A stretch of 10,793 bases of DNA, taken from an uncultured Prevotellaceae bacterium. GTDB taxonomy: Bacteria > Bacteroidota > Bacteroidia > Bacteroidales > Bacteroidaceae. A program made the translations under genes and the position numbers. This document shows, in pieces, positions 1 to 5,610 of the stretch. Where the stretch lies: the NCBI GenBank assembly GCA_937892315.1, contig CALAVF010000352.1:1-10793 (forward strand), given 5' to 3'. Positions within the stretch are counted from its first letter, which is position 1, and each line of letters starts with the position of its first letter. A model generated the notes under the pieces. That model ran no database searches and was not told the DNA's origin. It was given only the letters and a program-made list of their open reading frames with translations.

Positions 1-160
1 GAGATTTCGGAGGGTGATTTGAAGACATTTCTGTGTAATCTGCTCAATCGTGCCGCAGGCACTTGTCGGGATAAAAAACGACATACCCCTTTGGGGTGAT
101 TAAAGGGATTAAGCGGATTTTTCATATGCCATGTGGGGCATCTCCCCGTCTTTGTCGTCA

Positions 161-310
161 TGTCAATTTCGTCTTGGCAAAAAAGGCACGTAGGAAGCGT
201 TGAAAGTGGTCTGAGTCAGACCGCCGAGGTGGTGTGACTCAGACCACTCGGGCGATGTGAGTCACACCACTTCAGAGGTGACGGGTGTGTCATTTTGTCC
301 TATAGGGGGA
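161..310 (-). repeat. 150-bp structured 3'-UTR repeat, copy 1
   Basis: This segment aligns without gaps to 5461-5610 (constant offset 5300) with 11 differences, at 179, 184, 191, 226, 227, 250, 255, 261, 274, 284 and 304. Weaker similarity continues to about 324 on one side. On the other it reaches about 113 (GATTTTTCA and CATGTRGGGG words) with a small length difference. The core is three 15-bp odd-centred dyads starting at 208, 231 and 254, exactly 23 bp apart. The element lies in the 3' untranslated region of the porin gene, 87 nt past its stop, in the same orientation as copy 2 past tamB. No terminal inverted repeats or target duplications were seen. The family is not one I recognise. Its role could be RNA 3'-end protection or processing, a protein-binding array, or a passive dispersed repeat. 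Confidence 0.93.
205..248 (-). other. Long hairpin formed by dyad units 1 and 2, repeat copy 1
   Basis: AGTGGTCTGAGTCA at 205-218 is the exact reverse complement of 235-248. Inside it, one G-G mismatch (219/234) is followed by five more pairs (220-224 with 229-233, one of them a G-T wobble in the plus-strand reading) and a four-base apex at 225-228. A competing 12-bp perfect stem joins 229-240 with 259-270, so units 1+2 and 2+3 cannot both pair. The 15-mer GGTCTGAGTCAGACC at 208-222 is also a palindrome by itself. There is no T-run directly after the stem on the minus strand, so this is not a classical intrinsic terminator. Confidence 0.8.
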
Positions 311-4728: not shown

Positions 4729-5277
4729 TCATGATTCCTTCGCCTTGACAAAGTTCGTAATCTTCTCCACCGCGATGTGGTACGACGCTTTCAACGCACC
4801 CACGCTGGTGCCCACCAGTTCTGAAATCTCCTCATATTTCTTCTCCTCAAAATACTTCATGCAGAACACCTGCCTTTGTTTTGCTGGCAGGGTAGAGACC
4901 GCTTGCATCAGCACCTGTTCCGTCTCGTCACCGTCAAAGTCTTCATCCGCCACGAAAGTTGCCTGTCCCGTAAAGTCTTCGTCATCAATCGACACCATCT
5001 GTCGCCGCTGTTTCAGAAATGTCAACGACTCGTTATACGCAATTCTGTACAGCCACGTGCCCAGTGCCGAATCACCCTTGAAGCCGTCAATGCCTTTCCA
5101 CGCCTTGATAAACGTGTTTTGTAGCACATCGTCCGTATCCTCATGGTTTTGCAGCAGATAGTGAATCTGCCAGTACAATTGCCTTGAAAAGCAGTTGACA
5201 ATATCCTCAAACGCCCGTCTCTTTGTCCGTGCGTCCTTCAGTCTCTCCAGTATGTCCTGCTCATTCAACTTTGCCAT
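4729..5277 (-). CDS. ECF-family RNA polymerase sigma factor
   Basis: The 182-residue length and two-domain structure are typical of ECF (group 4) sigma factors. Region 2 spans about residues 22-91, including DTDDVLQNTFIKAW (47-60, core binding) and TWLYRIAYNESLTFLKQ (74-90, -10 recognition). An acidic linker (98-119) follows. Region 4 spans about 123-175, with LPAKQRQVFCMKYFEEKKYEEIS and the helix-turn-helix ELVGTSVGALKASYHIAVEKI, which contacts the -35 element. The ATG at 5275-5277 is the natural start. It is the first gene of a three-gene unit with the membrane protein and Spy-like protein. A housekeeping-type promoter (5350-5378) and an ECF-type promoter (5300-5325) stack upstream, suggesting basal expression plus autoregulation. 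The inducing signal is not visible; envelope stress is the likely class given the partners. Confidence 0.96.
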   Translation of the reverse strand: MAKLNEQDILERLKDARTKRRAFEDIVNCFSRQLYWQIHYLLQNHEDTDDVLQNTFIKAWKGIDGFKGDSALGTWLYRIAYNESLTFLKQRRQMVSIDDEDFTGQATFVADEDFDGDETEQVLMQAVSTLPAKQRQVFCMKYFEEKKYEEISELVGTSVGALKASYHIAVEKITNFVKAKES

Positions 5278-5378: not shown

Positions 5379-5460
5379 AGAAAAATGGAGAAAAAATCAG
5401 AGATTACGCAGATTTTTCACAAGTCATGTAGGGGAGTACCTTTGCCCCTTCTTGGTGGAA

Positions 5461-5610
5461 TGTCAATTTCGTCTTGGCTAAAACGGCACGCAGGAAGCGT
5501 TGAAAGTGGTCTGAGTCAGACCGCCTCGGTGGTGTGACTCAGACCACTCAGGCGGTGTGACTCACACCACTTCGGAGGTGACGAGTGTGTCATTTTGTCC
5601 TATTGGGGGA
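5461..5610 (-). repeat. 150-bp structured 3'-UTR repeat, copy 2
   Basis: This is the second copy of the element at 161-310, 139/150 identical and gap-free. It lies 85 nt past the tamB stop codon, on the same strand and at nearly the same distance as copy 1 past the porin stop (87 nt). Dyads start at 5508, 5531 and 5554. The third, GGTGTGACTCACACC (5554-5568), is a perfect odd palindrome here but imperfect in copy 1, while the unit 2 / unit 3 stem has one mismatch here and none in copy 1. Similarity continues to about 5624 and, less exactly, back to 5408. Confidence 0.93.
5505..5548 (-). other. Long hairpin formed by dyad units 1 and 2, repeat copy 2
   Basis: The stem bases are identical to those at 205-248. 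Only the two apex bases differ, GA in copy 1 and TC here, which are each other's reverse complement. The stem has 14 perfect outer pairs, one G-G mismatch and five inner pairs including one G-T wobble in the plus-strand reading. Confidence 0.8.

What the first reader, a model, noticed from the sequence alone, without database searches (positions are those of the whole stretch)
161..310. A conserved 150-bp element sits in the 3' UTR of two envelope genes at the same distance and orientation
Seen: 161-310 and 5461-5610 are 139/150 identical with no indels, each 85-87 nt beyond the stop codon of a large minus-strand envelope gene (porin, tamB). The C/T-rich DNA between stop and element is not conserved in detail, so this is not simply a duplicated gene end. 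Inference: the element is either a 3'-UTR regulatory or processing module, a protein-binding array, or a dispersed repeat that inserts preferentially after genes. No family name comes to mind.
Basis: partly seen in the sequence, partly recalled or inferred. Interest (0 to 1): 0.7.

Follow-up and report, generated by a model that had tools for sequence, protein, structure and literature searches.

The report
Triple-palindrome arrays paired with HU-like proteins
The two matching stretches are copies of a dispersed DNA element made of three evenly spaced 15-letter palindromes, known here from one group of mainly rumen bacteria, and it is probably the binding site of a dedicated HU-like DNA-binding protein whose own gene usually carries the same kind of array just before its start.

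Summary
Observation confirmed: 161-310 and 5461-5610 match at 139/150 without gaps, 87 and 85 nt past the porin and tamB stops. The core is three copies of a 15-bp palindrome, GGTSTGASTCASACC (S = G or C), every 23 bp. It is not 3'-UTR-specific but a dispersed intergenic array: 275 exact units in the nearest genome, present in 18 of 45 genus genomes and 0 of 365 sampled genomes of other genera. Between 19 orthologous array pairs 0 of 684 non-S positions differ; spacers differ at 32 of 342, 7 of these from one inverted spacer. An HU-HIG protein (HU/IHF fold) occurs in 21 of 45 genomes: all 18 carriers plus three with a variant motif, GGTSAGASTCTSACC (Fisher p = 6e-12, not corrected for phylogeny). 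At least one unit lies upstream of its gene in 22 of 23 copies. Paralogous HU-HIG genes carry upstream arrays with other palindromes (20 of 28 GIG/GVG-class, 0 of 12 others); in two genomes the paralog's motif is also dispersed. Best reading: HU-like proteins, each with a private dispersed palindrome array. Binding is inferred, not shown.

The parts
160..303 (.). Array element, copy 1 (144-bp long form, edges ATGTCAATTTCGTC ... TTTTGTCCTAT)
   Evidence: 134 of 144 identical to 5460-5603; by my count of the printed rows about 27 of 41 distinct arrays fetched from the nearest genome have the left edge and 31 of 41 the right edge (that set was fetched by similarity, so it is biased to long forms)
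208..222 (.). Copy 1 palindrome unit 1, GGTCTGAGTCAGACC
   Evidence: exact match to GGTSTGASTCASACC
231..245 (.). Copy 1 palindrome unit 2, GGTGTGACTCAGACC
   Evidence: exact match
254..268 (.). Copy 1 palindrome unit 3, GATGTGAGTCACACC (one base off consensus)
   Evidence: read; not listed by the fuzzy scan
202..207 (.). Copy 1 left inner arm GAAAGT, opposite ACTTC at 269-273
   Evidence: arms CCTCAAAA / TTTTGAGG (up to 2 mismatches) on both sides of 97 of 146 arrays from all loci
5460..5603 (.). Array element, copy 2
5508..5522 (.). Copy 2 palindrome unit 1, GGTCTGAGTCAGACC
5531..5545 (.). Copy 2 palindrome unit 2, GGTGTGACTCAGACC
5554..5568 (.). Copy 2 palindrome unit 3, GGTGTGACTCACACC
104..159 (.). 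Outer stretch shared with 5399-5459 (weaker, with an indel)
   Evidence: D2; shared by part of the copies in the nearest genome
5399..5459 (.). Outer stretch of copy 2

Best explanation
The element is a tripartite operator array: three 15-bp palindromes (17 bp with the flanking base pair, which differs between species), 23 or 24 bp apart, bound by a dedicated HU-HIG protein, a 133-residue HU/IHF-fold protein encoded elsewhere in the same genome. Shown: the array's anatomy and dispersal, near-complete co-occurrence with this protein among the 45 genomes, an array upstream of the protein's own gene, and paralogous proteins with differently lettered arrays upstream of their genes and, in the two genomes sampled, dispersed as well. 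Inferred: that the protein binds the array (probably one dimer per palindrome), that binding at the array between promoter and start codon represses its own gene, and that at dispersed sites the protein-coated array acts as a local chromosome-architecture or road-block/insulator site, which would fit its intergenic position away from gene starts.
For: Selection on letters: 0 differences at 684 non-S positions in 19 orthologous G014/G037 pairs against 32 of 342 in spacers (7 of the 32 from one inverted spacer); 64 would be expected at the full spacer rate, about 50 without the inversion. At S positions 22 of 23 differences are G/C. Co-occurrence: strong ortholog (E at most 5.5e-62, 72% identity or more) in 21 of 45 genomes, including all 18 with the first motif; the other 3 (G018, G026, G019) carry the variant motif (11, 9, 12 units); of the 24 without it one (G020) has a single unit; p = 5.8e-12. 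Both traits need 5 changes on a 31-tip tamB tree, one tip discordant. Own-gene arrays: 20 of 23 copies by scan, 22 of 23 with at least one unit, last unit 44-45 bp before ATG in 15 of 23. Paralogs: 20 of 28 GIG/GVG-class with an upstream array, 0 of 12 GDFGSF-like class (one with only 61 bp upstream), random windows 4 of 400. Dispersed arrays match the same genome's paralog: CGACCACGWCGTGGTCG in G001 (2 in 400 kb), CGAYGTGSSSCACGTCG in G008 (4 in 398 kb), no cross-match. Arm residues INS go with GGTSTGA and ISS with GGTSAGA, also between two copies in G069. HU/IHF fold matches.
Against: No binding, footprint or expression data. The INS/ISS split is one clade on the HU tree, so it counts as one event plus a transfer; G065's C63 copy (INS) has a mixed array and G003 (ISS) has the protein but no array upstream. 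In G001, G014, G024 and G037 the array lies 113-344 bp from the ATG rather than at -45. 8 of 28 class paralogs show no array within 420 bp, and the 28 and 12 are not independent (several are orthologs of each other); the array found for L452 has an odd motif far upstream. In the 400 kb of G001 the first motif formed only 3 clusters, fewer than 275 units per genome suggest. HU proteins are mostly known as weakly sequence-specific (recalled). Co-occurrence is within one genus and partly phylogenetic. The chromosomal function is inference.
Confidence: 0.7

Rival explanations
1. A REP/REPIN- or MITE-like mobile repeat, moved by a transposase and without host function; nearness to HU-HIG genes is incidental.
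For: Dispersed, high copy, extragenic; long copies with common edges in G001; copy number differs widely (2-275 units); HU gene plus array sits in different gene neighbourhoods and a nearly identical copy occurs in G069 and G018. Six of 16 carriers searched do have a Y1 (PF01797) match, one of them strong, in G001, the genome nearest the window.
Against: Ten of the 16 carriers searched have no PF01797 match: G003, G008, G011, G012, G014, G015, G024, G033, G035, G036 (G063, G065, G069 were not in that search). No decay at the palindromes of inherited copies. The motif differs with the HU version or paralog. Profile searches of the HU-HIG proteins gave HU-type families only. Other transposase families were not tested.
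Confidence: 0.15
2. An RNA element: a two-way intrinsic terminator or 3'-end stabiliser formed by the palindromes in mRNA.
For: Strong predicted hairpins on both strands of both cores (z -5.3 to -6.9); T-rich arms after many arrays; at the pyrG locus the array stands 31 bp past a stop codon where 4 of 7 non-carriers of the same synteny have, by eye, a C/G-rich hairpin.
Against: 219 of 408 units have a C.C or G.G mismatch at positions 4/12; no compensatory changes at the 12 fixed positions although spacers change; 17 of 123 placed arrays lie between divergent genes; no Rfam family at gathering threshold; the simple terminator scan listed none at either core.
Confidence: 0.1
3. An operator array for some other transcription factor; the HU-HIG gene is only one of its regulated targets.
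For: An array upstream of the HU-HIG gene would also be expected if HU-HIG were merely a target.
Against: Paralogous HU-HIG genes have different array motifs, and in both genomes sampled the dispersed second motif matches the genome's own paralog; presence of HU-HIG tracks arrays across 45 genomes.
Confidence: 0.05

Closest known systems
REP/BIME and REPIN elements with RAYT transposases
   Same: High-copy extragenic palindromes, each tied to one gene family whose members carry their own version of the repeat beside them (passages of PMC2817692 and PMC3116915 seen)
   Different: Partner is an HU-fold protein, not a Y1 transposase; mostly three tandem palindromes at a 23/24-bp period; array upstream of the gene rather than inverted REPs on both sides; G/C-only variation at three positions
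BrickBuilt MITE of Porphyromonas gingivalis
   Same: 23-nt tandem repeats in an intergenic element of a Bacteroidales genome (abstract and passages of PMC4596501 seen)
   Different: Different consensus (AGAYCATARTATCCTCTCRTRTG), no match within 4 mismatches in the loci or window; repeat number varies widely there; its terminal repeats are not found in the window
HU / IHF nucleoid proteins and their sites
   Same: Same fold; the partner is in Pfam HU-HIG
   Different: Each paralog appears to have its own long, strictly fixed palindrome, unlike HU's weak specificity; arrays rather than single sites (HU/IHF facts recalled)
parS-ParB, SlmA, Noc and matS type dispersed palindromes
   Same: Dispersed palindromes read by one protein (recalled)
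   Different: Other protein folds; not in fixed tandem triplets; not multiplied into private codes for paralogs (recalled)

Membership tests
REP/REPIN-RAYT | high-copy extragenic palindromes | tested here: met
   275 units in G001, 84-109 in seven others; intergenic apart from one array inside a weak ORF call
REP/REPIN-RAYT | Y1 (PF01797) transposase in genomes with the repeats | tested here: not met
   no match in 10 of 16 array carriers searched; 6 have a match, strong only in G001
REP/REPIN-RAYT | GTAG or CGTC tag beside the palindrome (feature taken from the abstract start of PMC3733652 in the listing) | tested here: not met
   tag on either strand within 10 bp on the left in 14 of 146 arrays, on the right in 7 of 146
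REP/REPIN-RAYT | repeats in inverted pairs flanking the partner gene | tested here: not met
   units upstream in 22 of 23 HU-HIG copies; within 900 bp after the start codon the scan of 21 loci listed only one hit, with 3 mismatches
BrickBuilt MITE | 23-nt repeat consensus | tested here: not met
   0 matches with up to 4 mismatches in the loci held and the window
BrickBuilt MITE | terminal inverted repeats CCGAAAGGTCTC / GAGACCTTTGCA | tested here: not met
   none in the window with up to 1 mismatch
HU-HIG (PF18291) for the partner protein | profile match over curated cut-off | tested here: met
   44.4 bits against 26.2; NCBIfam HU_rel matches below its cut-off, 43.8 against 68.6
HU-HIG (PF18291) for the partner protein | HU/IHF fold | tested here: met
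   best of five AlphaFold2 models pLDDT 84.8, pTM 0.59, the others 77.0 to 49.6; Foldseek best 4fmr, E 7.7e-5, then HU structures; by sequence alone the best PDB match is only E 0.23, an HU
Operator of a sequence-specific DNA-binding protein | specific binding by the protein | not testable with these tools
   needs EMSA, DAP-seq or ChIP
Structured RNA element | compensatory changes keep base pairs | tested here: not met
   0 differences at fixed positions in 19 pairs; the variable S positions leave 219 of 408 units mismatched

The most novel reading that the evidence does not exclude
HU-HIG proteins of these bacteria form a private DNA code: each paralog recognises its own 17-bp palindrome, arranged in triplets, with specificity set in the beta-arm (N85 or S85 and neighbours), and each has its own dispersed array set and controls itself through a copy upstream of its gene. 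This would be a multi-channel system of sequence-specific, architecture-type proteins with paired genomic addresses, unlike any nucleoid protein I know of, and able to spread as gene-plus-array cassettes.
Probability: 0.5. Interest if true: 0.9.

Novelty: new variant of a known kind. Interest (0 to 1): 0.8.

Why it matters
HU-like proteins are abundant in Bacteroidota, often in many copies, with no known reason for the expansion (recalled; 9 to 13 HU-type matches in several genomes here). If each has its own palindromic address, that gives a direct, testable function to a large unassigned family (PF18291), a natural set of protein-DNA pairs for learning how a beta-arm could read sequence, and a protein-repeat partnership that resembles RAYT-REPIN but rests on a fold without known catalysis.

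Tried and rejected
Rfam at gathering threshold, phage and plasmid records and viral contigs gave no match. RAYT association was not supported. A search of paper texts for the motif letters listed 20 of 30 papers, none on a bacterial repeat by title and abstract. Searches on REP elements in Prevotella/Bacteroidetes and on HU-HIG proteins (listings only, partly cut: 20 of 22, 6 of 6, 0, 15 of 23, 10 of 41) showed no description of this array or pairing in that open-licence library.

I first thought the copy after tamB keeps its place upstream of a sigma-factor gene in G008; the G008 gene is only 28% identical, so I dropped it. A clean empty/filled site pair was sought at the L280 locus; beyond the array the G037 sequence does not match, so no target-site duplication can be stated. 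The pyrG locus gives filled and unfilled intergenic regions, too diverged to mark exact ends. Uneven spread of arrays over contigs was noted by eye and not tested.

Rows dropped: of 22 candidate G014/G037 pairs 3 were left out of the substitution count (two with fewer than 20 shared flank 12-mers, one of unequal length). Of 146 distinct arrays, 136 three-unit arrays with only exact units entered the S-pattern count. The fuzzy pattern scan can miss a unit (it missed 254-268). In the generic scan of 2.17 Mb of loci 23 hits were not of the T/A motifs: 19 lie in HU-HIG paralog loci, 4 elsewhere (L361, a dispersed paralog-type array in G008; L142, the AT-rich element; L346 and L414, not assigned). 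In the chosen stretches G001 gave 15 hits (2 first-motif, 2 CGACCACG, 5 AT-rich, 6 others) and G008 7 (2 first-motif, 4 CGAYGTG, 1 other); I did not study the 7 'others'. One tamB locus (L217) had only 169 bp downstream.

Full report
OBSERVATION. Positions 161-310 and 5461-5610 are 139 of 150 identical without gaps; the next best place on the + strand gives 59 of 150. They lie 87 and 85 nt past the stops of a Porin_10 gene and a TamB gene.

ANATOMY. The core is three copies of a 15-bp palindrome, GGTSTGASTCASACC, 23 bp apart (208, 231, 254 and 5508, 5531, 5554; the unit at 254 has one changed base). Of 41 distinct arrays fetched from it, about 27 share a left edge and 31 a right edge (my count of the rows; the set was chosen by similarity), giving a 144-bp long form (160-303 here); the rest share the core and short inverted arms. 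Arms like CCTCAAAA/TTTTGAGG, with up to two mismatches, lie on both sides of 97 of 146 distinct arrays from many species. Of these 146 arrays (three or more units, at most one mismatch each), 141 have three and 5 have four units; spacing is 24 bp (165 cases) or 23 bp (132). Arrays with fewer units also occur and were not in that set.

VARIATION. Positions 4, 8 and 12 are G or C. In 136 three-unit arrays with exact units, 219 of 408 units are mismatched at positions 4/12, and at the 272 junctions between units the pair (S12 of one, S4 of the next) is G,G 110, C,C 107, C,G 55 and G,C never. I have no full explanation of this junction rule.

DISTRIBUTION. The exact 15-mer occurs in 18 of 45 genomes of the genus (2 to 275 units; the reversed control pattern matched once, in G036) and in 0 of 365 genomes of 29 other genera of the family; of 399 genomes in that one search matched, all of this genus, and the reversed control matched once each in G036 and six others. 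No phage, plasmid or viral contig match. After tamB, only G001 of 30 fetched congener loci has an array, one of them with only 169 bp downstream.

PLACEMENT. Of arrays that could be placed: G014 16 tandem, 7 convergent, 5 divergent (1 inside an ORF call, 2 at edges); G037 15, 6, 4 (3 at edges); named set 49, 13, 8 (12 at edges). Gaps of 100 bp or more without arrays in the same loci, in the same order: 25/1/12, 16/1/11, 80/13/29. So arrays are intergenic, lean towards gene 3' ends and away from 5' ends, but are not bound to 3' UTRs. At pyrG, G011, G012, G033 and G063 have an array upstream of the gene; of 7 non-carriers of the same synteny, 4 (G010, G013, G016, G023) have, by eye, a C/G-rich hairpin there.

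SELECTION. The arrays of G014 (31) and G037 (28) listed by a two-unit pattern search were fetched. In 19 orthologous pairs (3 of 22 dropped) there were 0 differences at 684 non-S unit positions, 22 G/C differences and one G/T at the S positions, and 32 differences in 342 spacer positions. Seven of the 32 come from one spacer that is exactly inverted between orthologs (L290/L319). At the full spacer rate 64 differences would be expected at the fixed positions, about 50 without the inversion. Inherited copies are therefore kept letter for letter at the palindromes; a dead repeat would decay.

THE PARTNER. A gene found next to arrays in several lineages encodes a 133-residue HU-HIG protein (PF18291 over cut-off). 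In the 45 genomes a strong ortholog (E at most 5.5e-62, 72% identity or more) is present in 21: all 18 carriers plus G018, G026 and G019; the best hit in any of the other 24 is 5e-14 (G034), and some have none. The three apparent exceptions carry a variant array, GGTSAGASTCTSACC: G019 12, G018 11, G026 9 units; G036 has 53, G004 13, G008 9, G065 5, G003 3, G001 2, G069 2, and G020 (no ortholog) 1; 34 genomes have none. Ortholog against either motif: 21/0/1/23, p = 5.8e-12; against the first motif alone 18/0/3/24, p = 7.8e-10. The tests ignore phylogeny; on a 31-tip tamB tree each trait needs 5 changes (shuffled labels: mean 9.3) and one tip, G020, disagrees.

AUTOREGULATION GEOMETRY. Of 23 ortholog copies examined (21 plus second copies in G065 and G069), 20 have a three-unit array within 420 bp upstream by scan; G036 has two units, G031 one, G003 none. 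In 15 of 23 the last unit starts 44-45 bp before the ATG, and in most of these a TATCTTTG-like promoter element (Bacteroidota type, recalled) lies just upstream of the array, which would put the array in the 5' leader. In G001, G014, G024 and G037 it lies further up (113-344 bp).

PARALOGS. Forty HU-HIG paralog loci (about 38-49% identical) were fetched. Of the 28 with a GIGTL/GVGTL segment, 20 have an upstream array of the same layout but other letters, such as CGTACCCSWSGGGTACG, CGACGTGSSSCACGTCG, CGACCACGWCGTGGTCG or CGATGTCGWCGACATCG; of 12 with a GDFGSF-like segment none has (one had only 61 bp upstream); random 420-bp windows gave 4 of 400. The loci include orthologs of one another, so the counts are not independent. 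In stretches chosen without regard to arrays, G001 (400 kb) has two dispersed CGACCACG arrays and G008 (398 kb) four CGAYGTG arrays, in each case the motif of that genome's own paralog, with no cross-match; shuffled control 0. One more G008 copy lies in L361. In the same stretches the first motif gave 3 clusters each, fewer than the genome total of G001 would suggest.

SPECIFICITY. Copies with arm residues INS have GGTSTGA arrays and copies with ISS have GGTSAGA arrays, also within G069, which has one of each. Exceptions: G065's C63 copy (INS) has a mixed array, G003 (ISS) none. ISS copies form one clade and G069's ISS copy is almost that of G018, so this is one change plus a transfer. The best AlphaFold2 model (pLDDT 84.8, pTM 0.59; the other four 77.0 to 49.6) places residue 85 at the end of a strand, 78-86, which would be the first arm strand by analogy with HU (recalled); best PDB fold matches are 4fmr from Bacteroides vulgatus and HU/IHF proteins. 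By sequence alone no PDB match is significant (best E 0.23, an HU).

MECHANISM. Shown: conserved array, dispersal, co-occurrence, position upstream of the partner gene, paralog-specific motifs. Inferred: binding, a dimer on each unit, self-repression, and a structural or road-block role at dispersed sites. The RNA-terminator and mobile-repeat rivals each explain part, but not the fixed letters, the tolerated stem mismatches and the paralog-specific motifs together. A past mobile phase is likely: copy number differs widely and the HU gene with its array sits in different neighbourhoods. A Y1 transposase match is absent from 10 of 16 carriers searched but present in 6, strongly only in G001.

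NOVELTY. Searches of the held open-licence papers (listings) showed no account of these arrays or of HU-HIG with cognate repeats; subscription papers are not covered. It works like RAYT-REPIN pairs but fails their defining tests.

Noticed in passing
L498:10978, L499:13498, L502:2997, L503:11581, L504:10578, L142:7526: A second, AT-rich dispersed element in G001: several 17-bp palindromic units every 21 bp with TATAAAAT spacers and long inverted ends (TTCTTAAAACTAAA ... TTTAGTTTTAAGAA); five copies in 400 kb of chosen stretches. No partner looked for.
   Followed up: partly
136 three-unit arrays of many species: Junction rule: the S bases flanking a spacer are the same letter in 217 of 272 junctions, C,G in 55 and G,C never. 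Unexplained.
   Followed up: partly
L290 and L319 (orthologous array): One 9-bp spacer is the exact reverse complement between the two species, pointing to small inversions inside arrays.
   Followed up: partly
L478 (G069:C18): Second HU-HIG copy with a variant-motif array upstream, almost identical to the copy of G018 and with a similar downstream transporter-like gene: probable recent transfer of gene plus array.
   Followed up: partly
upstream of pyrG in G010, G013, G016, G023 (L344, L340, L339, L350): A C/G-rich hairpin, seen by eye, stands where relatives have the array.
   Followed up: no
window 4729-5277: Sigma-70 family (region 2 and 4) gene starting about 230 bp from the copy-2 array, with a TATCTTTG promoter-like element between them (motif recalled).
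   Followed up: no
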